In this document: positions 1,327 through 22,295 of the stretch, in pieces | Layout of the letters: each line of letters starts with the position of its first letter | Numbering within the stretch: the stretch's first letter is position 1 | Assembly (NCBI GenBank): GCA_009768925.2 | Contig: VHIT02000053.1 | Span: 124,001 to 188,000 of the forward strand | DNA length: 64,000 bases | Direction: 5' to 3' | DNA from: Cryptosporidium bovis | Taxonomy: Eukaryota > Apicomplexa > Conoidasida > Eucoccidiorida > Cryptosporidiidae | Made by a program: the position numbers and the translations under genes | The notes under the pieces: generated by a model | Database searches by the model: none | What the model was told of the DNA's origin: nothing | Seen by the model: the letters and a program-made list of their open reading frames with translations, nothing else

Positions 1327-3000
1327 TTACCTTCCTCCCATCATATTTGGAGCACCCATTCCAGGTAAAGGACCATGCATGCGGTCCTCCTCACTAGACT
1401 TGTTCTTTATCGTTTCATCTATAGACAATATAGAGCATGCAGCCTCAGAAGCACTGGCAAATGCACTTAATTTGTTAACAGCAGGTTCCCAAATGAAGGA
1501 ATTAAGTGCATCACATATTCCGCCTGAATTGCAGTCCACTCCATAATTTTGACATCCTTCACCGTTTTGGGCGTGCTTTTGCCTCAATCCGTTGAGTATA
1601 TCAATGGAATCAAAGCCTGAATTGGCAGCAAGGGTCTTTGGAATAATTTCTAATGCCCTGGCAAATGAATTCATCACGAGCTGTTCTTTCCCCATAACGT
1701 TCCTTGCATAGTCTCTGATCGTCTTTGAAACAGCCATCTCAACTGCCCCTCCACCGGGAACAATGTAAGATGACTTCATTGCTCTTCTTACAATCATTAT
1801 TGCATCATTGAGGGATCTCTCCGCCTCGTCAATGAACTGTTGAGCACCACCTCTAATAATTATTGTAGAAGACTTGGTTTTTGGGCAGTCCTTGAAAATA
1901 TTATATCTTTCAGAACCAATCTGAACTTCCTCAAATTCTGAACATGTGCCGAAGACACCACTGTCTTTATTAAGTCCATATACAGTAGTTTGGACAATTG
2001 CACCAGTTGCAAGTCTTGTTCTCCTTAAATCTTGCTCATCAACTCTTCCTGCACAGAATATGTTCTTTTCAGCAAAATATTGTGTAGCAAGATCACCAAT
2101 AGCAAGGCGACTTAATACGACATTCACTCCGGAAGAAGCAATGAGATCTAGTTTTTCAAATATAATACTCCATTCTGCATCTACGATGCTTTGATAAGCC
2201 GACGGGTCTGACAATCTAACTTCAGCATTGTCCTTTTCTGCCCTTAGTTCGAGTTCGAGATTAAGCAATAGTATCTTTGGATTCTTAAATTTTTTTGGCT
2301 GTTGTTCAAACCCAGCATACGAAAACGTTTTTTTGAATGCAACACCCTTAACTAAAAAGCTGTCTAGTACGGAACCACCAGCAACTTTCTTAATACCTAT
2401 AAGATCTTTGTCCATTTCATCGTCTAAATAAGATGCTGCATCCACAACCATATTTCCAAAGTAATTCTTATTGTGTGCCAAGAGCTTTGAATTTAAACTT
2501 GTTTCTGCACATTTAACTAGCATTTCTCTTTTCTTTTCAGGACTTTTCTCGGATAAATTTATTTTCATACTGTTAACCTTGTCTATCGCTATTTGTGTAG
2601 CTCTTCTAAATCCAGATATAATCACCTGAGGTGACATCCCATCCTCTATAAAGCTTTTTGCTTCCTTTAAAAACTCTCCTGCTAATATAACTACACCTGT
2701 TGTACCGTCGCCTACCTCCTCATCTTGGGCTTTCGCTATTTCAACCAAAAGTTTGGCTGCTGGATGAACAACTCCAAGTAAGCTAAGCACTGTTGCACCG
2801 TCATTCGTTATTGTAACATCACCTGTATTGCCGTTCTGGATAAGTTTGTCCATTCCATATGGTCCAAGAGTAGTTTTAACTATATCTACAATTGCCTGGC
2901 ACGCTGTTATATTACTTAGTATTTGTCCCTTTCCCTGAGACGTATCGGAGCCTTCCTTAAGCAATATAATTGGTGCTCTCAACATTTGGGACATGTTCAC
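1327..3000 (-). CDS. CCT7: T-complex protein 1 subunit eta (chaperonin CCT7)
   Basis: This is one of the eight subunits of the cytosolic group II chaperonin TRiC/CCT, which folds actin, tubulin and other proteins in an ATP-driven double ring. At 557 residues it has the full family length. The N terminus [17 protein letters not shown] is the eta-specific start. Chaperonin signatures follow in order: [12 protein letters not shown], the nucleotide-binding [21 protein letters not shown], and the catalytic loop [15 protein letters not shown] with the Asp for ATP hydrolysis. The apical domain lies in the middle, and the equatorial GGGAVEM signature comes near residue 420. The C terminus ends in a Gly/Met-rich tail ([12 protein letters not shown]), as in other eta subunits. 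It lies head-to-head with CCT3, another subunit of the same ring, sharing a 1.1-kb intergenic region. No intron or truncation is seen. Subunit assignment rests on the N-terminal pattern and is confident. Confidence 0.97.
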
Positions 3001-4101: not shown

Positions 4102-5772
4102 ATGATGATTCCAAATCAGGTTTTGGTAGTGCAACAACCCTCACAAAGAGACCAGGGAAGAAAAGCCCAGTTGAGAAATATACAGGCAGGAAAAACAGTG
4201 GCTGACGTTGTGAGAACTACACTCGGTCCCAAAGCCATGTTAAAAATGTTGCTGGATCCGCTTGGAGGTATAGTGTTGACAAATGACGGGAACAGTATAT
4301 TGAGGGAAGTGGATGTTGCCCATCCTGGTGCTAAATCAATAATAGATTTATCAAGAACGATAGATGAAGAGGTTGGAGATGGTACAACGAGTGTAGTTGT
4401 TTTGGCAGGTGAATTTTTAGCAGCGGCGGAACCATTAATACAAAGAAATATTCATCCTACGATAATAGCAAAGGGATATCTAAAGGCATTGGAAGACTCG
4501 TTGAAGTATATGGATGATATGAGTGTTAAACTTGACTTGAACAGCAAAGAGTCTCTTGTTCAGGTAGTTGATTCTTGTTTAAAAACAAAATTTTCGGGAA
4601 GGTGGGGGAGTTTAATAAGTTCAATGGCATTGAAAGCTGCGGAATCTGTTACAGTAAATCACGCAGGATTTCCAAAGGAGATAGATATTAAAAGATACGT
4701 TAAGATTGAGAAGATACCTGGTGGTGAGATAGAAGATAGTTGCGTTTTAGATGGTGTTATCGTTAATAAAGACGTTGTTCATCCTAGAATGAAACGTTTG
4801 ATTATAAACCCAAAGGTGTTGCTTTTGGATTGTACACTGGAATACAAGAAGGGTGAGAGTCAAACCAACGTTGAGGTAACGAAAGAGGAGGATTGGGAGG
4901 CCCTACTTAAACAAGAGGAGGAAGAAGTTGAATCGATGTGCAAGGATATAATAGCAACAGGCTGCAATGTTGTGTTTACGGAAAAAGGTGTTTCAGATAT
5001 TGCTCAACACTTTTTAGTAAAAGCTGGTATATCCGTAATTAGAAGAATAAGGAAAAGCGATAACAATAGAATTGCAAGAGTTACAGGAGCAACCATTGCA
5101 AGCAGAACAGAGGAACTTTCTTCAAATGACGTGGGAACAGAGTGTGGAAGATTCGAAATTAAGAAAATAGGTGACGAATATTACTGCTTTTTAACAGAAT
5201 CAAAAACCCCGAAGGCCTGCTCGATTCTTTTAAGAGGTGGTTCTAAGGACGTACTTAACGAATTGGAAAGAAATCTGCACGATGCCTTGGCTGTTGCGAA
5301 AAACATTTTATTAGATCCAGCACTTCTCCCAGGCGGTGGTGGCACTGAGATGGCTATTTCTTGTTATTTAAACGAAAAATCGTATTCAATAGAGGACACC
5401 CAGGTATGGGCATATAAGGCATTTGCTCAGGCCTTGGAAGTCATTCCAAAAACTCTAGCTCAAAATTGTGGTGCTAACGTTATGAAAACGTTAACACTGC
5501 TTAGATCCAGATATCTTCTTTCATCTGATAAGGGTTCTAAGCCTGTATTTGGTATTAATGGTTGTTCTGGAGAAATATGTGACGTTACCCAACTAGGGAT
5601 TTGGGACACTCTTGCCGTAAAACAACAAGTTTATAAAACGGCTGTTGAAGCCACTCTTATGTTACTTAGAATAGATGACGTGCTTTGTTCGGTTTCTAAG
5701 AAAAAGTCTCCCGTTAAAAACGAGGTATCTCAACCAAATGTTGAGGCATTTGGGGACTCTAGGGACGGATAA
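4102..5772 (+). CDS. CCT3: T-complex protein 1 subunit gamma (chaperonin CCT3)
   Basis: This is a second subunit of the TRiC/CCT cytosolic chaperonin. At 556 residues it is full length. The start MMIPNQVLVVQQPSQRDQGRK is the gamma-type N terminus. It is followed by TTLGPKAMLKMLLDPLGGI, the nucleotide-binding TNDGNSILRE, AHPGAKSIIDLSRT and the ATPase loop [18 protein letters not shown]. The motif LDPLGGIVLTNDGN distinguishes gamma from the other seven subunits. The equatorial signature GGGGTEMAIS appears near residue 413. The tail after about residue 535 is short, charged and variable, as is usual. The gene is transcribed away from CCT7, which points to balanced expression of two partner subunits from one intergenic region. 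I see no intron and no missing catalytic residue. Confidence 0.97.
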   Translation: MMIPNQVLVVQQPSQRDQGRKAQLRNIQAGKTVADVVRTTLGPKAMLKMLLDPLGGIVLTNDGNSILREVDVAHPGAKSIIDLSRTIDEEVGDGTTSVVVLAGEFLAAAEPLIQRNIHPTIIAKGYLKALEDSLKYMDDMSVKLDLNSKESLVQVVDSCLKTKFSGRWGSLISSMALKAAESVTVNHAGFPKEIDIKRYVKIEKIPGGEIEDSCVLDGVIVNKDVVHPRMKRLIINPKVLLLDCTLEYKKGESQTNVEVTKEEDWEALLKQEEEEVESMCKDIIATGCNVVFTEKGVSDIAQHFLVKAGISVIRRIRKSDNNRIARVTGATIASRTEELSSNDVGTECGRFEIKKIGDEYYCFLTESKTPKACSILLRGGSKDVLNELERNLHDALAVAKNILLDPALLPGGGGTEMAISCYLNEKSYSIEDTQVWAYKAFAQALEVIPKTLAQNCGANVMKTLTLLRSRYLLSSDKGSKPVFGINGCSGEICDVTQLGIWDTLAVKQQVYKTAVEATLMLLRIDDVLCSVSKKKSPVKNEVSQPNVEAFGDSRDG

Positions 5773-6587: not shown

Positions 6588-9500
6588 GTGATGAATACAA
6601 TATTGCTTATAATTAAATGTACGTTTTTACTTGTTAACACAGTATTAAAGTTGGAAGTGGGTATAAAAATAGGTGTAGAATGTTCTGAGATCAGGGGTCC
6701 CGTAGTTAATAACAAGAATATACAAGTGAGCTACTACCTAAAAAAAGCAGGGCTTGATAAGGTAGACATTGATGAGCAGACAAGTGAGATAATATCTGCT
6801 CAAGATATAAGTGTATACCCAGAACTTATAAGTGGGTTGATTGAACTTCCAGAAACGTCGAAAAGTTTGTTGTTTTCAAATTCAATAAGCAACCAAGAGG
6901 ATTTTTTTGAAAATGTTATATATGTGGAAAAAGACGAAGGGCTTGATTATGATGAGTATCAAAGTGGGTTTGGTTTGAACATTGAGGAGGTAATGGTTTC
7001 AAAAGATGAGGTGATATTAAAGGATATGGAACACGATAATAATACAGATATAAAAATGTCTTTGGCCAATTCGAAAATTGAAAATAGTGTTTATCCGTTG
7101 TACTATAAAAGGTATATTCCAAAAATATCAATTGAGGAGTTGTTATCCTATTTTATTCATCCAACTCTGCTAATAGCAGATTTTTTGGATTCTGACATGG
7201 ATTCTGAATTAATAATGAGGATATTGGATTCAGTTTTTAAACCAAATCAAAGCGAACCGGAGAACAATAATAAAAACAATACTGGAGAGAATGTTAATCA
7301 CTATAATTTCAGTACAAACAAATTAAAAAGAAAATTCCTGGATAGGGATAACATATATTTAATAATAAAAAGCCTAATATTAAGAAAAAAGAATGGTTCT
7401 CTGCAAATCTTGAAAAAACTTATTCAATATGGTCTTGACATTAATATATTTAAAAAGTTTCCTGAATTGTTCACCCTTGCTGTTAGAAATTCGAATTATT
7501 CTTTTGTTGAGTTTATATTGGATAAAATTAAATACGAACAGGAAGGGGTTGAATCTCAAAAAGGTGATTCATTATCCCAATATTCGTCGTTACTCTCACA
7601 ACCTTCACCTTCATTGTCATCAAAATCCTCATTTTCATCCAAAAATGTTGAAATAAACTCTGAGAATGTGGGAGTTAAATTGGATGAGTGTGATATCGTA
7701 AACTTGGTTAATACAGTGGACAACTATAATCACACGTCTCTTTACTATGCAGTAGAGAACAACGATTTGGAAATGGCAAGTATGTTAATATCAAAAGGAG
7801 CCTGTGTGAACATGTGGGATCCGAGAACTGGTTCAAATGCATTAATGGTGGCAATGAGAAACCACAACGGAGCAATGGTTGGGTTGATAATGGACAATGG
7901 CGGAGATCCTCTTAGAATATCACCAATATCAGGAATGGACGTAATGGACATAGCAATAATGGATAATGACAGTAGAATGATAGAAAAGATAGTAAACCAC
8001 AAAAACTATGACATAAATACAGCGAATAATGACCTAAAAACGGTTATAATGGAGTATGCAGCATTTCAGGACAACAAGGATGTTGAATTTATAGACAAGA
8101 TATTGAAAAAGAACTTTAATAAGGAAACATTTGTAAAGCAATTGAATGATTATGAAAAGGAAGCTAAGCACATACTTGGTATAATAAAAGCGAGGTTATC
8201 TGATTCAATACTAAGTAGGCTTTTAAAAATAGAAAGTAAGAAAAAGATTGCCATTTTGTGCAGCATAGAGGACAGTGACGGAAGAGGTGCATTTTGGTGG
8301 TCTGCGTATTATGGTAATTTGAAGCAAATACAATACATACTAAACTTTTATAGCGAAGCTATTAGAAATAGATGGGTTGGATATAAGAGCTGTAATCCAC
8401 ATAAAGAGGATAAATATGGGATATATCCATTAAATTTGCTAGTTCGTAAAACATCGAAATTTCCTAAAAAGCTTGTAATAGATATACTTCAATTTAAAGA
8501 TCCAAAAACAAATTCTTCTTTAATGCTTCAAATACTTTCGAATTCAAAACAACCAATGAGAGCATTAAAGGACATATTTGACATATTAAGGGATAGATTC
8601 AATATATCGTATTCCTTTTTTAATATATGGTCGGACGATAAATTGATTATTGACCCAATATACTTTGCAATGTGTAAGCAACTTTCTCCTAATATTATTC
8701 ACTTTCTGCTAAAAATAGCCACAAAGTATGCCGATGAAATAGTTGGAACCACATCAATATGGAAATCTAAAGTTATCCACTCCGTTCATACATTTAAGAA
8801 TGTTAAGAATGTTGACATATCTTCTATTATTCAATTACAAGAGGGTAATTTTGTTCACCTTGAACATGAGATGGACAACATTCTTCATTCTCAATTGGAG
8901 ACGAATATTGCAATGGGAGTAAGAAGCAAAGCATTTATGTCAAAGTCAAAGAGTGCATTAAAAAACGAGAAATTGCCAATTTTAGACACAAAGTCATTTT
9001 TTTCAAATAATGAATCGGAACTCAAAAATATGTTCGACAATAAATGGAGAACAAACATCATTCATGCTCACCACGACTCTAATGACTCTAAAAGACCTTA
9101 CAGAGTTTCTCAAGACTCTATTCCGTTCCAAATAAATCCTCCAACATTAAAGTCTTTTTTTTTCACAAGAAGGTATACAAGTGTGGATAATAGTTCCGAG
9201 AACATTGCTAGAAGTATCATTGGTAGAGGTCCCTCTCACAAATTAATAGATAACATCAGAACTTTGGTTGAGAATGCCGTCGGGATTGGTGTTAAAACAT
9301 GCTCTTGTTATCATTCAGATATGGATCTTGCTTCTAGGTCTACTTACTTGAATTCAAAGCCTTTTTCATTGTCGGACTATTCCACTGTAGGAGCAAATTG
9401 TGTAGAAAGGAGATGTAGAAGAGATGAGGGTGGCGGAAGGGAAATGAGAAACAAAATAGATGGGGTCAATTGCATCGGAGATAATGACTGGTATTCCTTT

Positions 9501-12500
9501 AAACAAAATGCAGGCTACAGGAATAACAATAGTTGCCAAACACATCAACATGATACCGAGAAAAGGATCTCCAATTCCGTGTTTTCTGCGATTAAAGAAC
9601 ATTTGAACCTGTCAAAAAAGTTTTTCGGCGATGGAAAAAGTGATAATCAGTATGAAAGTGAATCAAATAACCCTTCTCTGGTATTGAACAACAAAAAGAA
9701 TATTTTTCACTATGGAGAAAAAAATTTTATATATCCATTTGGAGAAGCAAGTATCGATATTATTAGGCATATTGTTGATCTTAGACCGGAAACTATCGGC
9801 GAGGTCCTGAATAGAGTTGATTACGGCTCTTTTTCTGATTCTGATAAAATTCTTGCATTACTAGAAGCTTTACCTCGAGACTTTCCGCCATTCGATGCAC
9901 ATGCATTTTCCCCACTACAAATGGCGGCAAACTATTTATATAGGTATCAGCAAAATAGGGAAATATTAATAGTATTGGGTGCGCTGTTTTCTCAGAGATA
10001 CATAAGGTTATTCTCAAGAGACCAGATAACTGAGGCGTTGAACACGCTAGCACTGATTGAGTACTGGCCAAACGACATTATTGAGTTGTTTGGTGGAATT
10101 AGGTTCAAAAAGAACGGTTTGAATAGTGCAATTTACGGGTTTGCTTCCAACGAAAACGGTTTGAGAGAGAACGAATTTGGTCTATCTGATAGAAACAACT
10201 TTCAATATGAGAATGTTGGACGCGCTGATGCTACTTTCAATGATGAGAGTGAACACGAATATGGAGACAGGGGTAAATTTAGAAATAATCTTAAAAGGCG
10301 AGAGGACATCGGGGGAAGTGGGATGAGAAAGTCCGATAACGGCTTACTTGGTGAGGAGGATCAAACTTTATACGGGAAAGGAAGCTATCAGAATGGTGAA
10401 GGTTTTGACATAGGAGGTAAAATAAAGAACATATTAGGAAAAAACAAATTACGATCAGTAAAACTTGAGATATTAGACATAATTGACGATATATCTGGTT
10501 TACCTTGGGACAAAAGACTGACAGATTCTGATGTGGCGTTTTGCATACTTTGCATATTCACAGTTATACTTCTATTGTCAATATACTTCAATTCAAATAT
10601 AAATTACTATACTGTGTGCAATTCTATGAACAATAGAATACTTGACATCTCAAACAAATACAATTGCGAACTTCCATTATTGGAAATGGGAAGCAATTTT
10701 GTGATGGACTTTGGTATAGTCTATATGTTTAATGTGCCTTATGCCTCAAATGGAAGCACAAAGAATGCAATTTGGAATTCAATAAAAGCGTGTTTATTGG
10801 TAAACAAATTGTCAGACTTTCCAAGAAAAAAATATAAGGGCAGTAATGATTCACTTTACGAATCTTTTCAATTTTTAATCATAAGCTTTATACTGAAGTT
10901 CTCTGGTGCACTAAATGTAATTAAATTTATATCTGTAGTTTTGTTTTTTACCTTGGTATTTTTATGTGGAATGTACGAAGAAATGGCAATTTCCCTTGTA
11001 TTTACAGTTATTGCAATCGCCATATACTCAATACATGGAAGAAAACTTGATAGTAATATGTACTCCCAACTCAACTCCTGTTTTAAATATAGCAATAATC
11101 TGCTTATTCCAGAAATAATGATGCTTTACGAACAAACAAATATTCAGGTTATAAAGTATGCAAAAAGAGCAATAGCTCTTCATTTTAATCTTAAAAGGTC
11201 ATCTTTGGCTGCTAATTCTGGATTGGTTGATGATTCATCAAAATATATTAGTAAATTGGAGTTTATGAACCGACATTTCTGCGAAGAAAATACTTACACT
11301 GAGATTCCGGAAATTGGGTTTTTGGAAATAACAAAACAGAATCATAACAAAATTGAAAATGCAAACAAGTGTTATCGACTCTTGTTTATAATGCACTTGA
11401 TATGCATTGTACTTTCATTTTTTATTACTTTTAAACTTCCTTTAGAATGTATGAAGAACCAAACAAGTAATAAGATAAATCTTTCATATGATAATCTATC
11501 AGATTTTCAGAATATTTTATCGGCCATAAGTACCTGCAGAAAATTGTACCAGTTCCAGTACTCTCACCTTTATCAGTTAACTAGATTTTATCCTATGTTG
11601 GTATCTTATCTCAATTTTACTGCTTTTCTCTATTACTGGCAATTGTTTTCAATGATGGCGTCACCGATAATATCCCTCACTCTTTCTCTTTATCATTTTA
11701 AATCTTTGGCAAGTATTTTCAATTCTGCTCTTTCCACTCCAATTAATATTCTTCTTCCGAACGCAAGAGCGAGCAAAATGATTATTTCCCAGTCTTTTTC
11801 TAGCAAAGAACCAACATACGTTTGTTCAGCCACAACAGATATAAAATACAACCGTTCTTTATCTTTAAATATGGCAAATAAGAATGGGATAATAACAAGT
11901 GATGGAAAAAGAAATTCAGGTGCGTCATCTTTTGTCATTAATTCCATAAAACCAAGCGCAAGTTCTTGTATTATTGAAACAGAAGCTAACTTTGAGTTAG
12001 ATGGAATCAAAAGGGTTGTTGGAGGGCTGGATTCGTCCTCTTTTTCACTATTTAACAACCATTTTTCTCAAAATAATGATGCTTTTAGATCTTACTGCAG
12101 TCAAACTCAGATTGAGAAACAAGCGAGTAATCCAGAATTAAGGCTTAAAGGCCTATTAAATTCTGGTATTCACATTGAATCAAATAACATTGAACATGAC
12201 TATTCTGAATTCAATCGTACAACTTATAATGCCGATGATGAAAATTCTGAAGTTTCTTACTACAAAGTTCTTGAAGCACAAATATATCCATTCTTCATTT
12301 GGGCCGATTCAAGAAAAAACTCACATAAAATATGCAAATACTTTTGGAAACCCATTGATAACTTCAAAGACCACCTTGCCATTGCTATGGTAATGTTGAC
12401 CTTGTTCTTTTACTATGTTGAATCAACCTCAAGTTCCATTAAAGATATTAGAATATGGGAAGTTATTTCACCTATAATTCTGGTTCTTGGACTGTCTCTT

Positions 12501-12740
12501 TTATATATAATCTATCTTATGGTTGAAATTAATAGGGAGACTATTGAATTTTGGCAATGGGTTCCTGACGTTTATGATATTCTCCCTATTTGTTCAAATT
12601 TACTTAGTTCAGTTGAAAATACCATGAGGCTCCTTCCCACTTTAACTTCTCCATTCAGTATTCTGAATATGCGGGTAACATACCCATTTTTTTTCATTTC
12701 AATCATATTATATCTCATTTCAATCAACATCTACATCTAA
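6588..12740 (+). CDS. Giant ankyrin-repeat, multi-spanning membrane protein (paralogue 1)
   Basis: The product is 2050 residues long. It starts with a hydrophobic segment (residues about 3-21, LLIIKCTFLLVNTVLKL) that looks like a signal peptide. Residues about 250-500 hold degenerate ankyrin repeats, the clearest being HTSLYYAVENNDLEMASML and ALMVAMRNHNGAMVGLIM. A conserved block near residue 565 contains FWWSAYYG and then CNPHK, also present in the next gene. A long charged, low-complexity middle follows. The C-terminal third has about eight hydrophobic helices (near residues 1317, 1430, 1455, 1597, 1680, 1930, 1960 and 2034) with long loops between them. Ankyrin repeats ahead of a helix bundle resemble TRP-type channels in layout only; I see no pore or TRP-box motif. 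The predicted signal peptide would place the ankyrin domain outside the cytosol, which is unusual. It is probably a lineage-specific surface or endomembrane protein. Function is unknown. Confidence 0.85.
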   Translation: MMNTILLIIKCTFLLVNTVLKLEVGIKIGVECSEIRGPVVNNKNIQVSYYLKKAGLDKVDIDEQTSEIISAQDISVYPELISGLIELPETSKSLLFSNSISNQEDFFENVIYVEKDEGLDYDEYQSGFGLNIEEVMVSKDEVILKDMEHDNNTDIKMSLANSKIENSVYPLYYKRYIPKISIEELLSYFIHPTLLIADFLDSDMDSELIMRILDSVFKPNQSEPENNNKNNTGENVNHYNFSTNKLKRKFLDRDNIYLIIKSLILRKKNGSLQILKKLIQYGLDINIFKKFPELFTLAVRNSNYSFVEFILDKIKYEQEGVESQKGDSLSQYSSLLSQPSPSLSSKSSFSSKNVEINSENVGVKLDECDIVNLVNTVDNYNHTSLYYAVENNDLEMASMLISKGACVNMWDPRTGSNALMVAMRNHNGAMVGLIMDNGGDPLRISPISGMDVMDIAIMDNDSRMIEKIVNHKNYDINTANNDLKTVIMEYAAFQDNKDVEFIDKILKKNFNKETFVKQLNDYEKEAKHILGIIKARLSDSILSRLLKIESKKKIAILCSIEDSDGRGAFWWSAYYGNLKQIQYILNFYSEAIRNRWVGYKSCNPHKEDKYGIYPLNLLVRKTSKFPKKLVIDILQFKDPKTNSSLMLQILSNSKQPMRALKDIFDILRDRFNISYSFFNIWSDDKLIIDPIYFAMCKQLSPNIIHFLLKIATKYADEIVGTTSIWKSKVIHSVHTFKNVKNVDISSIIQLQEGNFVHLEHEMDNILHSQLETNIAMGVRSKAFMSKSKSALKNEKLPILDTKSFFSNNESELKNMFDNKWRTNIIHAHHDSNDSKRPYRVSQDSIPFQINPPTLKSFFFTRRYTSVDNSSENIARSIIGRGPSHKLIDNIRTLVENAVGIGVKTCSCYHSDMDLASRSTYLNSKPFSLSDYSTVGANCVERRCRRDEGGGREMRNKIDGVNCIGDNDWYSFKQNAGYRNNNSCQTHQHDTEKRISNSVFSAIKEHLNLSKKFFGDGKSDNQYESESNNPSLVLNNKKNIFHYGEKNFIYPFGEASIDIIRHIVDLRPETIGEVLNRVDYGSFSDSDKILALLEALPRDFPPFDAHAFSPLQMAANYLYRYQQNREILIVLGALFSQRYIRLFSRDQITEALNTLALIEYWPNDIIELFGGIRFKKNGLNSAIYGFASNENGLRENEFGLSDRNNFQYENVGRADATFNDESEHEYGDRGKFRNNLKRREDIGGSGMRKSDNGLLGEEDQTLYGKGSYQNGEGFDIGGKIKNILGKNKLRSVKLEILDIIDDISGLPWDKRLTDSDVAFCILCIFTVILLLSIYFNSNINYYTVCNSMNNRILDISNKYNCELPLLEMGSNFVMDFGIVYMFNVPYASNGSTKNAIWNSIKACLLVNKLSDFPRKKYKGSNDSLYESFQFLIISFILKFSGALNVIKFISVVLFFTLVFLCGMYEEMAISLVFTVIAIAIYSIHGRKLDSNMYSQLNSCFKYSNNLLIPEIMMLYEQTNIQVIKYAKRAIALHFNLKRSSLAANSGLVDDSSKYISKLEFMNRHFCEENTYTEIPEIGFLEITKQNHNKIENANKCYRLLFIMHLICIVLSFFITFKLPLECMKNQTSNKINLSYDNLSDFQNILSAISTCRKLYQFQYSHLYQLTRFYPMLVSYLNFTAFLYYWQLFSMMASPIISLTLSLYHFKSLASIFNSALSTPINILLPNARASKMIISQSFSSKEPTYVCSATTDIKYNRSLSLNMANKNGIITSDGKRNSGASSFVINSIKPSASSCIIETEANFELDGIKRVVGGLDSSSFSLFNNHFSQNNDAFRSYCSQTQIEKQASNPELRLKGLLNSGIHIESNNIEHDYSEFNRTTYNADDENSEVSYYKVLEAQIYPFFIWADSRKNSHKICKYFWKPIDNFKDHLAIAMVMLTLFFYYVESTSSSIKDIRIWEVISPIILVLGLSLLYIIYLMVEINRETIEFWQWVPDVYDILPICSNLLSSVENTMRLLPTLTSPFSILNMRVTYPFFFISIILYLISINIYI

Positions 12741-13322
12741 CTGGATCATTTTCTGGAACAAATGGTAAATTTATACACTGGTTCACAGTGAAGAATCAGA
12801 CATTCCACTTCTATCTATTGCTTTAAGTATCTGCATTAAATACATAGTTATCATTTTTATACATCTTGTCTTATTATCTTGCTATCCATTTCGCTCCTTG
12901 TTTTCATAACCCTCAATTTCTTGACATTGTATCGGTTAATTTTAAATATATGCATTTTTTCAATTATTAGTGTTTTAACATTAACGCACTTTCCCGCCGA
13001 GTGTGCCGGTACCCACTGAAAAAAGGTAGTAATAACAAATGAATTCATAGAATTAATTTAAATATTTCGCATGGGTAAAAAAAGATTAACAAAAACAGTT
13101 AGTTTCTAGTGTGGAGTACCGGAAAGAATAGAGTTTTATTTTCTCTTTCAGAAAAGGTGCACATTTAAAGAGCAATAAAGTGTGAGAAACGGCTCATAAT
13201 TTTTAAATGTATAGGTTCTGGGTAGAATACGCCGTTATATGTTGAATTAAACTTAATTACACAGTTAGCACTGTAAATGTTTTACAACAAAAGACGAATA
13301 GTGCTTTTCAAGGAGAAGTCAA
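12741..13322. other. Intergenic region between the two ankyrin membrane genes
   Basis: No gene is seen here. There is a GC-richer spot at about 12990-13018 (CCCGCCGAGTGTGCCGGTAC) and a TACCGG at about 13117. It presumably holds the promoter of paralogue 2. A short minus-strand frame at 12857-13048 is not supported by anything. Confidence 0.45.
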
Positions 13323-16300
13323 ATGTTGGTTTCAAAGCTTACACGAAAATGGCTTATTATAGTTTTTGTTATATTCTTTGTAATTTGCGAGAGCAATACA
13401 AAAGTGAACAGAAGATACGGATATAAAGTTGGAGAAACAGCATCGATTAATTCATCTCAAATTTATTCAGTAGTAAGGTCAAAATTTGACTCTAATTCGA
13501 ATCAATCAAAGGTGATACTTACTAGATACTTTGGAGACAGGCTATCGGCACCAGTTCAGCTTTTAGAGTCAATAGTTACGAGAGATGTGGGTCGTTTTGT
13601 GAATATATCAAATTTCTTGGCAAAAATAGGATATAAATTTGGAAAGAGCAAACACTCTGAAACTGCATTAACTGCCGCATGTAAAATATCTGGTGAGGTT
13701 GGTTATTTCTTCGTATCTCATCTTCTTTCACTTGGAGCCTTTGTGGATACGTACAACGAATACGGTTACACTCCTTTGTTAATAGCATGTAAATATCAGC
13801 ATAAAGAAGTGATTAGATTGTTGATTGAAAAAGGTAAATCAAGAATAGATAACCCCGATTCAGATGGAAGAACACCTTTATTTTACGCAATTACTCAATT
13901 GAACATTAATTTGGTTAATTATTTGCTGAATAAGGGTGCCAATCCAAATTATAGAGACGTATTAGGAAATACGCCATTGATACATGCTGTGATGGTTAAC
14001 TTTAAAGACGCAATTGGTTCATTATTATCACATGGAGCGTTTCCATGGCTGAGAAACTATTCAGGATTCGACCCTGTTACACTAACTGTATTAGAAAATA
14101 GAGTTGACTTGCTTCCAATACTAATTAGTTCAAAAACATACTTTACTGAGGAGTCTAACATAAGAGCAAACACTCCTGAATATCATCATTCTGCAGCAAG
14201 GAGACTGTTGATTGGTATAAAACGATATATAAGAGAGCCTATATTGCTTGAGTTGTTGGAAATTGAGATATTTCTGGAGAATATACTAATATGTTCGGCC
14301 TCTGATCAAGAGGGTTTGACTATATTGTGGTGGGCATCGAAACTCCACTATCCTAGATTTATATTTAGACTTTTGGAGTTTTACACAAAAGCAGTAAATC
14401 TTCCAGAAGGCCATACCTGTAATCCCCACAAAATAGGAAATAACCAGATTCTACCTCTGGAGTTATTGATAACGCATATATATAATTTGGAGCCTCCATT
14501 TGGCTTCTCATTTAGAAGGAGATTTATGGATTTGTTGTTCAAGGGAAAAAACAAAGAAGCATTGAATATTCCAAATATTGATCTAATGAACATATTTGTC
14601 TTGTTATTTATGTTAGATCCCCATAACAATAGAACTTTTTTGATTCAGTCTCTCTATTTGAACATAAGTTTAGAAAGTTTGACTAAAATAATGTTCGGTA
14701 TACCCATGATATATATAGACTCAAATTTTCAAAGTGTTGCTCAAATGACGATTCTTATTAAAAATAGTGATTTTATGAGAAGATTTTACAAAATGATGAG
14801 AAACATAATATACAGACTTTTCAAATATAATGGCTCACCTCTTGAAAAAAATAAAACAAAATTGAGATACGTAAGACATTCGGAGAATCTTTTGAATGAG
14901 GAATCTTTGGATGAAGAACTTGACCAAGATGTATTGATTTTTACATCAAAGATAATATGCATGATCTATAGGAAGAGCAATAGACTCAAGATTGATGACT
15001 TTAATTTTATATATCATAAAAAAATACTCAATCCGATAATTTACCCTTTGCTGGTTACAGGAGAATCAAAGTCACTTGAAGAGTCTAATTCACTAAGCAT
15101 TAGCATACTTAGGGGAAATGTATTAATAGCAACTTTTTTTACTGATTTGTTCAGTCAATGTATAGAACAAATGGCCCTTCCAAGCCTGTTCAAGTACAAA
15201 GCCCTGTGTATAATTGCTTATAATGGGGCGATAAAACTTGCTTTAAAACAATATCAACCTTTGGATACTTCATCATATTTTCAAAAGGTAGTGGTGATTT
15301 CGTTATTTACACTAATAAGAAGTCGTCCAAGGTCTTTTGGCGAGATTTTATTGGATATTGATTATTGTAATCAGTCAGATGAGTCAATTGGTGTCAAGTT
15401 TTTGCAGTATATTATGTCGGGTTTTATTCCCAAAATTATGTACGCCAATAACTATATTGGAACTTACAATCACGTTAATATAGACAACAACTATAGACAG
15501 GTTAGTAGGAGGAATCAGTTTATTGACTCAGATCTCACAATCGAGCATCTTGAGGAAAAAATTACGTCTGATTCGTCAAAATATGACTATTTGCCGTTTA
15601 AATCTCTTAAATATAAATACAATCTTAAGGAAGATAATGAAAGTGTAGTTAGTGACAACGGTGGCAGAAATACCGGTAATGATACTATAGTTTCAAGACA
15701 GAACATATCTCCTTTGGAACTTTCAACAAAAATGCTATTAAACACAACTTGCGAGATGATAACTTCTAGATTTCCAGAAATAATGATGTACTCTAGTCAG
15801 GAGTTTCCTGATTTACAGATAAATGGTTGGGTCAAACCGAGTCACATTTCAAGAACTTTGGATATAATATTAAGTTCTGAAGCTAGGTTCGAGCACCTTC
15901 CATCAATGTTCACATTGTTTGTTCTTAAACTTCTTGGATTTTCTCCAAAGTTGTCAACTTTTGTGCTTAGAAAGTCTCAACTAAGCGATGACACTAAACC
16001 GTTTTACTTTTATAATATAAAAAGAACCTACATAGCTGAGTCAATATTGAGTCATTCCTTATTTAGATCAAGTAAATACATTAACTTCAAGATTGTGGCG
16101 ATAGTTACAATTACACTTGTTATTGGTGTCTTAATAATAATATTAATATTAATAATAAGTGAGACCCCAAGTTCATATAGTAGGAGTTATAAAAGGATCA
16201 TGGATGAAATTATTGAATACAGTAATTCAAGTGAATCAACTTCTCACTCTGAACAACCTACTTCTGAATATCCCAGTGAAACTGTAACTATTTCTAGTCT

Positions 16301-18407
16301 TCAATACGATTCTGAGAAAATGAAACTTAGGATAGTGTCAGAGGCCAAAACACCAACACCTACTTATAGAAATATAAACCAAGACAAAATTGGAAGACCG
16401 AGACTATCTTATTTTTCGAGATTTTGGAAGTCAGTGCTTGGAGTTTACTATATGGTATTAATAAGACTTTCGACAATATTCTGCTTAGACAGGCAAATAT
16501 CACTTACTTTTATATTTACAAATAATCTTCCAACAAAATCGAGAAGTTTTATTAGATCAGCTATATTTGGGATTAGATGCACTTTTTTTGGAAATGATGC
16601 CTTTGAAGCAATTTATTCAAAGGTATGCAATTTTATTGGTTTGGAGTACATAACAAACACGAGAAAACATTCAAAGTATCTTTTCATATTTGGATCATTA
16701 AGAGTATTATTATTTTCTTTTTCAACATATTGGTTGATTTCCTGTGGTAACTATGACATTCTAATACTTGTTGTGTATTTGACAGTATTTTCGATACTCT
16801 CAAATGCTTCACTTTCTTTAGGTAGTATTTCAAGTCAAGATAGAGACAAATTGTTTCATTTATTTATACCATCCAGCATTGATCTTCTAGAGAAAGCAAG
16901 ATTTAAGTCTGCTTTGAACCAAATAAATCGATTGAATTTTAACAATGATTTTGAAATTGGTCAAATAATAGGTTTCAGCAACAGTGATAATTCTGAAGGA
17001 AGCCCATCGACAAACATTTCACCTGATATGAATGACGGAATCACAAATATTCTGGACAAATACGCAGATTCTCTTTTAACTCCAAATTCTCATTTGATTC
17101 CAAGCAATCTTGCTATTCACTCATCTGTCCACTCTTCTAGAACGCCTAATTCAAACAATAGAGATGCAGTACAGCTCCCAAATACCTCATTCAAAGACGG
17201 TTTTTGGGACTCTAAGCTTCCGTGTCACAAGAATTGGGCATACAGGGACGTCTTTCATGAATACTATTCTGTGTGGGCAAGTTCGCAGTTTAATGAATCG
17301 AAAAATCACTCAAACACCTCCTTAAATACAGACAGCGGAAACTCTCCTGGAAGCAATTGCATGACCTCCCAAAATCCTTTCGATGCAATAAATTCATATA
17401 TGATAATAAATGATGATGGGAATCACTCAAAAAGCAATAATAGCAACAGCTATAACTATAGATACTTTAATCACAATTCAAATGAAACTTTTAATAACAG
17501 TCCTAAAAGTCAATATAATAACCACTATAATTTTTTTTCGGGAGATTCAACTCCTGTATTAAATTCAGCTCAGCATTGCAATAATATGAATCTACAGAAC
17601 ATTTCAATAGAGCATCACATACTCTCAATATGTCAGTATGAATTCATAAAACCTAATGAATGCAGAATTTGGTACACAATTCAGTGGGTTATTTGCATTT
17701 TTAATGTTTCCTTATTTTATATTTTGTCTATGACTTGCAATAAAAGGAATTTGTACTATAACTTTCTTCAATATTCTGGAAAATGGAGAAATTTTACTCA
17801 GGGAACCTTCAAACCCATTTTCTTTGAGGTAGTAACTAACACTCATCTTGCTACGTTAATTTGGACCTTCTCCAATCCTATTGGATTCCTTTGGTTAATA
17901 TTAATACAAAGATTTAAATTGTTTTTATACATAACAAACAGTTTGATTAAGAGAAAGAAACAGAGAAAATTAGCAACTTCGAATATAAGTGAAATACTCG
18001 TTTTGAGAGAACTGACTTTTTTTATAACTATGTGGAACTACACAATATCAAGAAACAATAACTATCTCCAACTTACTCTTTACAATAAACATTTTAAATT
18101 CATTTACTTTATCTCAATGTTCTTCTTAATGCTTCATTTTTTGATTATAAAAGATCAGATCTCACTTATTCCAAGATCTCAGTTCTTTTCAACTCTCTTA
18201 TCATTAATCATATCATTTGGAATATTACTCATTATCATTCTGATATTCATAATTCTCACAAACTTAATTTCAAGAAGCATTTCCTCCTCCATAAACTCTA
18301 TTTTAAATACCTACTATCACAATAAACAATTTCACTTTTTCTTAAAAAGAGAAATTGCAATCCTCTCTTCAAAGAGACACGATTCTCTTTTACATTTAGA
18401 CTATTAG
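13323..18407 (+). CDS. Giant ankyrin-repeat, multi-spanning membrane protein (paralogue 2)
   Basis: The product is 1694 residues long and follows its paralogue on the same strand after 582 bases. It starts with a good signal peptide (WLIIVFVIFFVICES, residues about 10-24). Ankyrin repeats at about residues 115-275 are clearer than in paralogue 1: YGYTPLLIACKYQHKEVIRL, GRTPLFYAITQLNINLVNYL and GNTPLIHAVMVNFKDAIGSL. The shared block with paralogue 1 comes next (near residue 325, EGLTILWWASKLHYPRF, then TCNPHK), and further on IRSRPRSFGEILLDIDY matches VDLRPETIGEVLNRVDY of paralogue 1. Hydrophobic helices lie near residues 921-945, 1118-1165 (two), 1448, 1509, 1591 and 1622-1650. Serine/asparagine-rich linkers separate them. 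The same order of parts in both proteins supports a tandem duplication that has diverged strongly. Location is probably a membrane of the secretory pathway or surface; biochemical role unknown. Confidence 0.87.
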   Translation: MLVSKLTRKWLIIVFVIFFVICESNTKVNRRYGYKVGETASINSSQIYSVVRSKFDSNSNQSKVILTRYFGDRLSAPVQLLESIVTRDVGRFVNISNFLAKIGYKFGKSKHSETALTAACKISGEVGYFFVSHLLSLGAFVDTYNEYGYTPLLIACKYQHKEVIRLLIEKGKSRIDNPDSDGRTPLFYAITQLNINLVNYLLNKGANPNYRDVLGNTPLIHAVMVNFKDAIGSLLSHGAFPWLRNYSGFDPVTLTVLENRVDLLPILISSKTYFTEESNIRANTPEYHHSAARRLLIGIKRYIREPILLELLEIEIFLENILICSASDQEGLTILWWASKLHYPRFIFRLLEFYTKAVNLPEGHTCNPHKIGNNQILPLELLITHIYNLEPPFGFSFRRRFMDLLFKGKNKEALNIPNIDLMNIFVLLFMLDPHNNRTFLIQSLYLNISLESLTKIMFGIPMIYIDSNFQSVAQMTILIKNSDFMRRFYKMMRNIIYRLFKYNGSPLEKNKTKLRYVRHSENLLNEESLDEELDQDVLIFTSKIICMIYRKSNRLKIDDFNFIYHKKILNPIIYPLLVTGESKSLEESNSLSISILRGNVLIATFFTDLFSQCIEQMALPSLFKYKALCIIAYNGAIKLALKQYQPLDTSSYFQKVVVISLFTLIRSRPRSFGEILLDIDYCNQSDESIGVKFLQYIMSGFIPKIMYANNYIGTYNHVNIDNNYRQVSRRNQFIDSDLTIEHLEEKITSDSSKYDYLPFKSLKYKYNLKEDNESVVSDNGGRNTGNDTIVSRQNISPLELSTKMLLNTTCEMITSRFPEIMMYSSQEFPDLQINGWVKPSHISRTLDIILSSEARFEHLPSMFTLFVLKLLGFSPKLSTFVLRKSQLSDDTKPFYFYNIKRTYIAESILSHSLFRSSKYINFKIVAIVTITLVIGVLIIILILIISETPSSYSRSYKRIMDEIIEYSNSSESTSHSEQPTSEYPSETVTISSLQYDSEKMKLRIVSEAKTPTPTYRNINQDKIGRPRLSYFSRFWKSVLGVYYMVLIRLSTIFCLDRQISLTFIFTNNLPTKSRSFIRSAIFGIRCTFFGNDAFEAIYSKVCNFIGLEYITNTRKHSKYLFIFGSLRVLLFSFSTYWLISCGNYDILILVVYLTVFSILSNASLSLGSISSQDRDKLFHLFIPSSIDLLEKARFKSALNQINRLNFNNDFEIGQIIGFSNSDNSEGSPSTNISPDMNDGITNILDKYADSLLTPNSHLIPSNLAIHSSVHSSRTPNSNNRDAVQLPNTSFKDGFWDSKLPCHKNWAYRDVFHEYYSVWASSQFNESKNHSNTSLNTDSGNSPGSNCMTSQNPFDAINSYMIINDDGNHSKSNNSNSYNYRYFNHNSNETFNNSPKSQYNNHYNFFSGDSTPVLNSAQHCNNMNLQNISIEHHILSICQYEFIKPNECRIWYTIQWVICIFNVSLFYILSMTCNKRNLYYNFLQYSGKWRNFTQGTFKPIFFEVVTNTHLATLIWTFSNPIGFLWLILIQRFKLFLYITNSLIKRKKQRKLATSNISEILVLRELTFFITMWNYTISRNNNYLQLTLYNKHFKFIYFISMFFLMLHFLIIKDQISLIPRSQFFSTLLSLIISFGILLIIILIFIILTNLISRSISSSINSILNTYYHNKQFHFFLKREIAILSSKRHDSLLHLDY

Positions 18408-19538: not shown

Positions 19539-22295
19539 ATGACTAAACATAAGAATGTAAATGGAGATATGGGGTTACTTCTAAGTAATAACGATCTTTC
19601 ATTTGATGAAAAAAAACTCAAGTGTTTAAACGCTGAAAAGAATGATCTGTGTAAGATTGGAAGGGAATTTAGTGAGAAATTTTTCACAGTGAACAATGTA
19701 GAAGCTGAGAATACTGCTCTTATTAACAATATTTATCCTTACCGAAGTTCTGATTTTTTGCATTCACAGTGCCTATATTCAGCGACCGGCAACAATCAAA
19801 TAACTGATTACCTTGCACATGCAGTTCAAAAGAGGGAATTCGAAAATTCTTTAGAAATAAAGACTAATTCAGATGATATTAACGCTGAAAATGTTGATTT
19901 TTGTAAAAAGATGGCAAAAGGAATAGAAGAAAAGTTAGATATATCAAAATATAACTCTGTGATAAAGGAAGATAAAGTGAAAAGAAAAGTTATACTTGAA
20001 TGGTATAGAAACAACGAACTCTTTAGTAAGCAATGGAGTTGTAAAAAATTTGGCAAAGAAGGTGCAGCTAAAAGAGCAATTCAGTTTTTAGAGAAAATAC
20101 ACGGAATATCAGTGAAATGCTTTCCAGGTGGTTATTATTCAACACTGATTGAGATCGGATCTTTAAAAGACAAAAATCAGGATCCCAAAAAGCAACATGT
20201 TTTATTCCATACCAAGGAAAAGAGAAAATACAAAAAAAGATTGAAAACTGAAACAATGATATACGAAAATAGCAATGACAATAACAACACTAATACATAT
20301 GATGAACCTCACTTAAAAAACGAAAATTATTTGAATGAGGAGCATGCATTATTAATTCAAAGAATGATGTTGTTCTTTCTGTCAGTAGACATTGATAATG
20401 CACATAATAATTGTAATTTAATTAAAGAAAAATGTAAAGTTATTAAAAATGATGGAGGTCAACTTAGGAATAACTTACATTTAAACTGTAGAAAGTTATT
20501 CAGAAATGTATATCAAGAATTACTCAGTAGTCAGAATTTTTATTGCAATTATAAATATAACTATCAAACAACTGAATACCAAAATGACCCAACTCAAGTT
20601 AGATTAAGTTTATATAAAGATGATAATAATATTGATTACTTAAATAGTAATAATCAAACCAACTGTTATAGTTATTGTAATTCATTAGTTGGAATAAGAA
20701 ATGTTAAGGACATACTACAAAAAACAACCAGACGTGATATTCAAATAAATAACTCAATAGAAGATATTAAAAAAATAATAAGTACAAGTGAAAACAATTC
20801 AAATAACGATCCTGACAATACAATAGATCACTTTCTTTGGGAAGAATTGATTAAGAATGGGTCTAGAATAAACGACGATTTACAGTATTTATCTGAGGGT
20901 GGATTACCTGGAAATACTTCAGTATGTTTGTCTAAATATGGTGATGGTAATTTTCGCTTTAATAGGTGTGGTATCCTGTCATGTAGTAATGACGAACAAT
21001 TAGAGGATTTATTTAAACTTATAGACCATAATAGATCTTGTTTAAATTTGATTCACATTGAAATTGAAAGAAATGGAACTAAAATTATGCCACGTTTTGA
21101 AAAGAGAATTACAAGATTACAAGGAAAATTTAATGGTCACAATAATCATGTATATGATGAAAAAAACGCTATAAATTCAAATTGTGACAATTTAGTAGAT
21201 GATAATTTAGAGATGGAAAATGCTATTTATACATTACTAGATATGAGATATGGATTAAACAATTTAAGATCAAAAGATGTGTTGATAGACTTGATTGATA
21301 TTAATGAAAATATTAATTCTCAGGCAAATGAACTTTCAAGAGTCAATGTAGTACATACTAAGAAAAGGAAAATAAATTCAAATAATATACTAGACGAATC
21401 AGGAGGTAATATTTTAAAAGATAGAAAAAATAAGATAATAAAAAAAGATTCGGAAATTGAATCGAATTATGATGTTAGTGAATATAGTAAGAGTACACTA
21501 GAATGGTGGAAAAAACCACGTGGTTGGAAGGTTTCTTATTATAGAGGAAAACAAAAATATTCACAAATATTCAAAGTATCATTAAATTCAACAAGTTCAG
21601 AAAGAGAATCTCAATATAAGCTTGCATATGAATTCTTTTTATCAACAAAAAATAAAGAATTGCCTTATACTAACGAAAATACAAACACACAAAATGTAAC
21701 CACCAGTAATATAGATCAATTAAATGTTGGTCCTGACCGTATTTCTGATAACTCTATGGTAAAATTTAATACCAATAATAATAATAATAATACGGAAAAA
21801 AACTATTGCAATAATGGGTTACCATTCTTATTTAATTATATGAGTATTCCTCAATTCAATGGTAATGTCATCCCGCCATTTAATTATTGCATGTCTTTTT
21901 TAGGTTATTCACCACAACTTGGAATAGGAACACAGAGTTTTTGTAACCAATTAAATAACAATGAAAATACAAGTAATAATATTGTCAACATGATGGACTC
22001 ACAAAATACAAATATTTCCCTAATTCAACAAAATTCAGGTTCACTTTTGTACAATTCGACGGCATCAAATAATAAATCATCAACAACAGCACCACTATCA
22101 TTTAATCCACATTTATTTCAACCATTCTTCTCACCACTTTTTGCAAATATAAATTATCAGAATATGCTAATGAACAACATTAATTTGAACAGTTATCAAA
22201 ACGTGAATTTTGATGCAAACAATGGTGGTGCTTATCCAAGTAATGCAGGTGTTAATATAGATTTAAATTCAAATCTAGATATTGGACAAGTATAA
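19539..22295 (+). CDS. ApiAP2-family transcription factor with two AP2-like domains
   Basis: The product is 918 residues. ApiAP2 proteins are the main sequence-specific transcription factors of apicomplexans and act in the nucleus. A first AP2-like domain lies at about residues 147-190 (LEWYRNNELFSKQWSCKKFG, then EGAAKRAIQFLEKI). It shows the typical FS-x-KKFG turn and the A-x-x-AI-x-F helix but a weak first strand. A second lies at about residues 650-705 (LEWWKKPRGWKVSYYRGKQK, then SQIFKV and a helix YKLAYEFFLST), with the W-x-V/A-x-Y core. A helical block at about residues 265-330 could be an accessory domain. A basic stretch near residue 600 (TKKRKI, RKNKIIKK) is a likely nuclear signal. 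The C terminus is Asn/Ser/Pro-rich. The domain calls rest on pattern recognition; both domains are divergent. The promoter carries TGCATG motifs, which allows autoregulation (inference). Confidence 0.75.
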   Translation: MTKHKNVNGDMGLLLSNNDLSFDEKKLKCLNAEKNDLCKIGREFSEKFFTVNNVEAENTALINNIYPYRSSDFLHSQCLYSATGNNQITDYLAHAVQKREFENSLEIKTNSDDINAENVDFCKKMAKGIEEKLDISKYNSVIKEDKVKRKVILEWYRNNELFSKQWSCKKFGKEGAAKRAIQFLEKIHGISVKCFPGGYYSTLIEIGSLKDKNQDPKKQHVLFHTKEKRKYKKRLKTETMIYENSNDNNNTNTYDEPHLKNENYLNEEHALLIQRMMLFFLSVDIDNAHNNCNLIKEKCKVIKNDGGQLRNNLHLNCRKLFRNVYQELLSSQNFYCNYKYNYQTTEYQNDPTQVRLSLYKDDNNIDYLNSNNQTNCYSYCNSLVGIRNVKDILQKTTRRDIQINNSIEDIKKIISTSENNSNNDPDNTIDHFLWEELIKNGSRINDDLQYLSEGGLPGNTSVCLSKYGDGNFRFNRCGILSCSNDEQLEDLFKLIDHNRSCLNLIHIEIERNGTKIMPRFEKRITRLQGKFNGHNNHVYDEKNAINSNCDNLVDDNLEMENAIYTLLDMRYGLNNLRSKDVLIDLIDINENINSQANELSRVNVVHTKKRKINSNNILDESGGNILKDRKNKIIKKDSEIESNYDVSEYSKSTLEWWKKPRGWKVSYYRGKQKYSQIFKVSLNSTSSERESQYKLAYEFFLSTKNKELPYTNENTNTQNVTTSNIDQLNVGPDRISDNSMVKFNTNNNNNNTEKNYCNNGLPFLFNYMSIPQFNGNVIPPFNYCMSFLGYSPQLGIGTQSFCNQLNNNENTSNNIVNMMDSQNTNISLIQQNSGSLLYNSTASNNKSSTTAPLSFNPHLFQPFFSPLFANINYQNMLMNNINLNSYQNVNFDANNGGAYPSNAGVNIDLNSNLDIGQV

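What the first reader, a model, noticed from the sequence alone, without database searches (positions are those of the whole stretch)
6588..18407. Tandem pair of signal-peptide ankyrin proteins with channel-like membrane regions
Two adjacent genes (2050 and 1694 residues) share one plan: signal peptide, ankyrin repeats, a block with WW(S/A) and CNPHK, a later RPxx(I/F)GE motif, then about eight membrane helices. Ankyrins before a helix bundle are typical of TRP-type channels, but a cleaved signal peptide would put the ankyrins in the lumen or outside, which is odd. Sequence divergence between the copies is large, so the family is old. I know of no named family with this layout; this is my best candidate for an undescribed system in the window.
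Basis: partly seen in the sequence, partly recalled or inferred. Interest (0 to 1): 0.75.

Follow-up and report, generated by a model that had tools for sequence, protein, structure and literature searches.

The report
Outward-facing ankyrin membrane protein family
Two neighbouring genes of a Cryptosporidium gut parasite belong to a protein family of at least four members, so far seen only in this genus, that appears to carry a long ankyrin-repeat arm outside the cytosol in front of about eight membrane helices of unknown fold, the reverse of how ankyrin-bearing channels are normally built.

Summary
Confirmed and widened. The two genes (2,049 and 1,694 aa, single open frames) have orthologues across Cryptosporidium and belong to a family of at least four paralogues in this genome. 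All four share a hydrophobic N-terminus, ankyrin repeats, a strictly conserved cysteine pair bracketing the WW/CNPHK stretch, and one membrane layout: TM1, a tight TM2-TM3 hairpin (centres 24-27 residues apart), TM4-TM7 and, except in B, TM8 at the C-terminus. WW/CNPHK is probably the diverged end of the ankyrin stack rather than a separate domain. Signal-peptide-like N-termini (26 of 27), K/R bias (26 of 26), the cysteine pair and sequon placement favour ankyrins in the lumen or outside; each sign is indirect. Membrane-part homology between paralogues is weak: three of twelve profile comparisons stand out, but the set as a whole does not (p 0.19). No TRP, insect-receptor or other channel family was detected, and AlphaFold did not resolve the bundle (pLDDT 34). 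'Odd topology, no named family' holds; 'TRP-type channel' is not supported. Most likely these are multi-pass receptors, channels or transporters with an extracytosolic ankyrin arm; location and function are inference. Genome projects already label them by feature; five aimed literature searches listed no paper on the family.

The parts
6591..12740 (+). Gene A, 2,049 aa, single open frame
   Evidence: orthologues P0009-P0017
6591..6656 (+). A: N-terminal hydrophobic stretch, signal-peptide-like
   Evidence: comparable stretch in 10 of 10 A sequences (the window's own copy has a lysine within it)
7710..7910 (+). A: best Pfam ankyrin stretch, residues 374-440
   Evidence: Ank_2 E 3.1e-14
8220..8447 (+). 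A: WW/CNPHK block, residues 544-619, with invariant Cys557 and Cys601 (the only invariant ectodomain Cys of A)
9732..10070 (+). A: RPETIGE helical module, residues 1048-1160
   Evidence: A-D middle part E 5e-6; pLDDT 50-65 over most of it
10530..10592 (+). A: TM1
10905..11042 (+). A: TM2-TM3 tight hairpin, centres 25 residues apart
11379..11702 (+). A: TM4 and TM5
12369..12533 (+). A: TM6 and TM7
12693..12737 (+). A: TM8 at the extreme C-terminus
13323..18407 (+). Gene B, 1,694 aa, single open frame
   Evidence: orthologues P0003-P0008
13323..13394 (+). B: N-terminal hydrophobic stretch, signal-peptide-like
   Evidence: 6 of 7 B sequences (P0008's model starts later)
13545..14537 (+). B: ankyrin-fold region, residues 75-405 (first to last residue aligned in the best structural match)
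14253..14471 (+). B: WW/CNPHK block, residues 311-383, with invariant Cys324 and Cys366
15312..15431 (+). B: RPRSFGE stretch, residues 664-703
16098..16160 (+). B: TM1
16680..16817 (+). B: TM2-TM3 tight hairpin, centres 25 residues apart
17367..17396 (+). B: SQNPF(D/E)A(I/M)NS motif in the predicted cytosolic loop 3, residues 1349-1358
   Evidence: 7 of 7 B sequences
17673..17909 (+). B: TM4 and TM5
18090..18260 (+). B: TM6 and TM7; no TM8 follows

Best explanation
A and B are two of at least four paralogues of a multi-pass membrane protein family so far seen only in Cryptosporidium. Each is inserted through an N-terminal signal peptide, so that a long ankyrin solenoid, probably locked near its end by a disulphide between two invariant cysteines, sits in the lumen or outside. 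A seven- or eight-helix bundle follows, whose long disordered loops face the cytosol. Most likely it works as a receptor, channel or transporter at a host-facing or vacuolar membrane: the outer ankyrin arm binds a partner, and the bundle passes a signal or solute. In B the invariant NPF motif in a cytosolic loop would hook the protein to EH-domain endocytic adaptors. Shown: the family of at least four, the ankyrin fold of most of B's N-terminal 300 residues (by prediction), the conserved Cys pair and the shared helix layout. Inferred from several indirect signs: the topology and the disulphide. Pure inference: location, ligand, transport or signalling role, NPF function.
For: Family: (full-length profile E 5.5e-14 to 3.2e-24 for all six paralogue pairs). 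Layout: TM2-TM3 spacing 25, 25, 27, 24 and the same order of loops; of 10 inter-helix loops longer than 66 aa, 9 lie on the side opposite the ankyrins (exception: D loop 6, 204 aa). Topology: K+R within 15 residues of the helices higher on the side opposite the ankyrins in 26 of 26 sequences examined, 4 of 4 paralogues; N-terminal hydrophobic stretch in 26 of 27. Cysteines: two of the 17 fully invariant columns (27 of 27 sequences) are Cys, 42-44 residues apart, although Cys is 1.2% of that region. Sequons conserved in at least 80% of rows, ectodomains of A, B and C: 9 against 2 reversed controls; after TM1 4 against 4 (D not counted). Cryptosporidium has the N-glycosylation machinery (PMC9713705, passages seen). 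Ectodomain fold. NPF.
Against: No SignalP-type predictor was available; the window's own A has a lysine inside its hydrophobic stretch. Sequon counts are small, and A's N380 falls at an ankyrin consensus position. Sequences within a paralogue are not independent, so the K/R result rests on four lineages, D being a single sequence. B and C have 8 and 6 invariant ectodomain cysteines, not only the pair. As a set, equivalent membrane segments do not score above non-equivalent ones (Mann-Whitney p 0.19). The helix count rests on a hydropathy cut-off; D has a further peak of 1.63 at 2358 that was left out. B lacks TM8. Nothing here shows location or function.
Confidence: 0.5

Rival explanations
1. 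The ankyrins are cytosolic: the hydrophobic N-terminus is a reversed anchor or misread, and the protein is a TRP-like channel with extra helices.
For: Ankyrins ahead of a helix bundle are typical of TRPA1 and NOMPC (recalled), which appear among the ankyrin sequence matches. A 2011 survey listed an 8-helix C. parvum protein, XP_627518, as TrpC/TrpP/TrpV-like (PMC3194816, Table 2 passage seen); I could not tell whether it belongs to this family.
Against: No Ion_trans or TRP Pfam match in 27 of 27 family proteins at E<=10 (the program drops most matches above about 0.1); membrane parts of A, B and C have no credible sequence match to a solved structure at E<=10; K/R bias, the invariant Cys pair and sequons point the other way.
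Confidence: 0.1
2. An intracellular-membrane protein (ER, inner membrane complex, feeder organelle) whose ankyrins are lumenal scaffolds, with no host contact.
For: Same topology evidence; nothing here distinguishes the surface from inner membranes.
Against: None direct; the NPF motif in B hints at endocytic membranes but is only a short motif.
Confidence: 0.25
3. The ectodomains are one family but the membrane parts were acquired separately; the shared layout is coincidence.
For: Membrane-only profiles are mostly at noise; equivalent against non-equivalent segments p 0.19, and one non-equivalent pair scores as high as 24.3; merged profiles B+C against A 10 of 40 and A+B against D 17 of 40 shuffles as good.
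Against: Tight TM2-TM3 hairpin in 4 of 4; A-B TM1-3 0 of 200 shuffles reach the score, B-C TM4-8 2 of 200, C-D TM4-8 1 of 200 (these are the three strongest of twelve pairs, chosen after seeing the scores); merged C+D against B and B+C against D 0 of 40 each.
Confidence: 0.12

Closest known systems
Ankyrin-bearing TRP channels (TRPA1, NOMPC)
   Same: Long ankyrin stack before a helix bundle; sequence hits to their ankyrins
   Different: There the ankyrins are cytosolic and followed by a six-helix voltage-sensor/pore domain (recalled); here a signal-peptide-like start, 7-8 helices, no Ion_trans match
KIDINS220 (membrane ankyrin scaffold; solved with XPR1, 9jxq)
   Different: Cytosolic ankyrins and a different membrane part (recalled); no membrane similarity seen
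Alpha-latrotoxins
   Same: A precedent for ankyrin repeats working outside the cytosol of the producing cell (recalled); ankyrin-level sequence hits
   Different: Secreted toxins, no comparable eight-helix membrane part (recalled); no claim of kinship beyond the ankyrin fold
Insect odorant/gustatory receptor superfamily and GRLs (7TMIC)
   Same: TM2-TM8 here would be a seven-helix unit, N-terminus in, C-terminus out, longer inner than outer loops, last helix at the C-terminus; six GRLs are reported from the chromerid alga Vitrella (PMC7746228, passages seen)
   Different: No 7tm_6, 7tm_7 or DUF3537 match at E<=10, no conserved TM7 motif (motif recalled, checked by eye), extra TM1 and outer ankyrins, B lacks the last helix; fold not resolved
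Database names such as 'Ank repeat protein with possible signal peptide' and 'ankyrin repeat with over 9 transmembrane domains at C-terminus'
   Same: These are the orthologues themselves, in C. parvum and chipmunk genotype I
   Different: Labels by feature only; no family, cysteine pair or topology described in the names seen

Membership tests
Ankyrin-repeat proteins | Ankyrin repeat sequence and fold | tested here: met
   Pfam Ank_2 in A, B, C and D; predicted fold of B from residue 75 on; tight matches (rmsd under 3) end near B 320, longer ones reaching about 405 are looser
TRP channels | Six-helix Ion_trans/TRP channel domain | tested here: not met
   No such Pfam match at E<=10 in 27 of 27; 7-8 helices
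TRP channels | Cytosolic ankyrins | tested here: inconclusive
   Indirect signs all point the other way: K/R bias 26 of 26, N-terminal hydrophobic stretch 26 of 27, Cys pair 27 of 27
TRP channels | Channel fold | tested here: inconclusive
   A membrane model pLDDT 34.3, pTM 0.24, not searched because meaningless
7TMIC/GRL | Seven helices, N-in and C-out, long inner loops | tested here: inconclusive
   TM2-TM8 of A and C fit; D has an outer loop of 204 aa, B lacks TM8
7TMIC/GRL | Sequence match to 7tm_6, 7tm_7 or DUF3537 | tested here: not met
   None at E<=10 in 27 of 27
7TMIC/GRL | 7TMIC fold | tested here: inconclusive
   Model of A too poor
Secretory-pathway membrane proteins | Cleavable N-terminal signal peptide | tested here: inconclusive
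   Signal-peptide-like stretch in 26 of 27; no cleavage predictor or experiment
EH-domain ligands | Cytosolic NPF motif bound by an EH domain | tested here: inconclusive
   Invariant NPF in B only, 7 of 7; binding not testable here

The most novel reading that the evidence does not exclude
TM2-TM8 is a highly diverged member of the insect-chemoreceptor-like (7TMIC/GRL) channel superfamily, fused through TM1 to an outer, disulphide-locked ankyrin arm: a family of ligand-gated channels in which ankyrin repeats, normally cytosolic, act as the extracellular sensor of an intestinal parasite.
Probability: 0.05. Interest if true: 0.88.

Novelty: new variant of a known kind. Interest (0 to 1): 0.5.

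Why it matters
If the topology is right, this is a rare case of ankyrin repeats built into the outer half of a multi-pass membrane protein. The proteins are large (1,331-2,500 aa in this genome) and have orthologues across Cryptosporidium; no relative outside the genus was found at the search's limited sensitivity. The genus lives at an unusual host interface, so a genus-specific membrane family is a natural candidate for work there. The invariant cysteine pair and the shared layout give simple handles to test orientation and membership.

Tried and rejected
Membrane fold: AlphaFold of A residues 1040-2049 with 10 sequences gave pLDDT 34, pTM 0.24; not searched. The second and last job went to B residues 60-960, because that alignment was deeper; B's membrane bundle was not folded. 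Member C, the most compact, was not folded: its translation comes from a source the structure tool does not list, and its full-length orthologues exceed 1,200 aa.

CNPHK as a genome-wide tag: 3 DNA matches (reversed-pattern control 1); two are A and B, and at the third, on contig C21, no plus-strand frame of 150 aa or more covers the match, so it is not taken as a member. The C8 ankyrin hit and the C43:128916 hit are ankyrin proteins without the family plan, by reading. The remaining ankyrin hits were not read; loci L019 and L020 were fetched and not examined. So four is a lower bound.

WW/CNPHK and RPxxxGE pieces against Pfam: ankyrin only weakly, in a middle piece of C (E 0.018) and the WW piece of D (E 0.065); none in the A and B pieces, nor in the CNPH piece of C. 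Structural matches with rmsd under 3 stop just before the WW block.

Membrane-only searches of the own genome (A, B, C) found only themselves. PDB sequence searches of the same parts: C 0, B 1 (an antibody chain, E 0.69), A 0.

Relatives outside the genus: three protein searches gave 24 rows besides the query; 22 are named Cryptosporidium and 2 (P0005, P0011) carry no name (E<=1). They need shared 5-residue words and were length-limited, and only the candidates sharing most words were scored, so distant apicomplexan relatives are not excluded. D's orthologues were not searched (cap reached).

Tail motif shared by A and C around P-I/P-C-S: seen by eye, not supported by shuffles (15 of 30 as good). 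Merged profiles against A for TM4-8: B+C 10 of 40, B+C+D 3 of 40 and out of register.

Papers: eight searches, five aimed at this family or at ankyrin/ion-channel proteins of Cryptosporidium and three on other points. No listed title or abstract start describes this family. Only passages were seen, of PMC7746228, PMC9998090, PMC3194816, PMC9799330, PMC3681921, PMC9713705 and PMC4501334. Lists were cut (for example 25 of 29), and the library lacks most subscription journals.

Rows dropped: P0008 (C. canis, C-terminus not alignable and model starting late) from the membrane comparisons and loop counts (in part, 87) and from the cysteine and sequon counts; P0028 (also truncated) from all alignments; P0001, P0011, P0014, P0018, P0019 and P0028 not in the alignment.

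Full report
What is there. The window belongs to a 9.06 Mb, 43-contig genome that I take for Cryptosporidium, close to C. xiaoi (gene A's orthologue there is 94% identical over the region searched). Gene A (6591-12740, 2,049 aa) and gene B (13323-18407, 1,694 aa) are uninterrupted frames in the same direction. Orthologues are named in public records, for example 'Ank repeat protein with possible signal peptide' in C. parvum. Hits for A and B share a contig length in four other sources (149,716; 34,366; 18,575; 714,223), and in C. ryanae the locus tags are consecutive, so the side-by-side order is probably old.

A family of at least four. Searching the own genome found two more full members: C (C43, 1,331 aa, P0018) and D (C13, 2,500 aa, P0019). 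One of C's orthologues is named 'ankyrin repeat with over 9 transmembrane domains at C-terminus'. Full-length profile comparisons of all six pairs give E between 5.5e-14 and 3.2e-24, driven by the ankyrin and CNPH part. In a tree of that part (27 sequences) B falls with C and A with D (86/99); branches are long, D's above all, so this is weak.

The membrane half. Hydropathy (averaged over orthologues for A, B and C; a single sequence for D), taking peaks of 1.74 or more, gives the same order in all four: TM1, a loop, a TM2-TM3 hairpin with centres 25, 25, 27 and 24 residues apart, a long loop, TM4, TM5, a loop, TM6, a short loop (204 aa in D), TM7, about 50-65 aa, and TM8 at the C-terminus; B ends 48 residues after TM7 without TM8. 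Weaker peaks were left out, the highest being 1.63 in D. Sequence similarity here is at the edge. Most pairs are noise. Three stand out: A-B in TM1-3 (0 of 200 shuffles as good), B-C in TM4-8 (2 of 200) and C-D in TM4-8 (1 of 200), in register and chaining all four. These are the best three of twelve, and as a set the equivalent segments do not beat the non-equivalent ones (p 0.19). Merged profiles agree in part: C+D against B and B+C against D 0 of 40, A+B against C 1 of 40, but B+C+D against A 3 of 40, B+C against A 10 of 40 and A+B against D 17 of 40. I take homology as likely, not proven.

Topology. (i) A hydrophobic N-terminal stretch (best 12-residue mean 1.8-3.8) in 26 of 27 sequences (P0008's model starts late; the window's own A has a lysine within it). 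(ii) More K+R near the helices on the side opposite the ankyrins in 26 of 26 sequences and 4 of 4 paralogues, with 9 of the 10 longest inter-helix loops on that side. (iii) The invariant cysteine pair. (iv) Conserved sequons 9 against 2 reversed controls in the ectodomains, 4 against 4 elsewhere; Cryptosporidium makes N-glycans (PMC9713705, passages). Each is weak; together they favour outer or lumenal ankyrins.

Function. Committed reading: a receptor, channel or transporter of a host-facing or vacuolar membrane whose outer ankyrin arm binds a partner. B's invariant SQNPF(D/E)A(I/M)NS in a predicted cytosolic loop (7 of 7) resembles EH-domain ligands (recalled) and suggests endocytic traffic. 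None of this is shown.

Known families. TRP: no domain match, apparently the wrong side, wrong helix number. Insect-receptor-like 7TMIC: the TM2-TM8 layout fits A and C well, and a chromerid, a relative of the apicomplexans, has such proteins (PMC7746228, passages), but there is no sequence match and no resolved fold; kept only as the bold reading. The attempt to fold A's membrane part failed.

Verdict. A real family with orthologues across the genus and an unusual apparent orientation; I found it in no listed paper; mechanism open.

Noticed in passing
window 56153-59254 (+) and 59676-62507 (-): Two facing large genes (1,033 and 943 aa, hydrophobic N-termini by eye) are diverged relatives (blastp E 6e-8) sharing an HCD(F/L)HxNN(I/V)I stretch and a later IDL like a kinase catalytic loop, yet have no Pfam match at E<=0.01: possible secreted atypical kinases.
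   Followed up: partly
window 1327-2994 (-) and 4102-5772 (+): Two different TCP-1/cpn60 chaperonin subunits sit head to head beside the pair.
   Followed up: no
window 19539-22295 (+): A 918-aa protein, Asn-rich by eye, with a sub-threshold AP2 DNA-binding match (E 0.0011) is the next long frame after gene B.
   Followed up: no
window 17367-17396 (+): SQNPF(D/E)A(I/M)NS in B is conserved in 7 of 7 sequences inside a changeable loop.
   Followed up: partly
window 13323-18407 (gene B): No B orthologue from C. muris or C. serpentis appeared, while A has hits in both and C in C. muris; loss or low search sensitivity.
   Followed up: no
L018:2352-7037 (-): A 1,561-aa protein which by eye combines a SET/MYND-like region with ankyrins; not a family member.
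   Followed up: no
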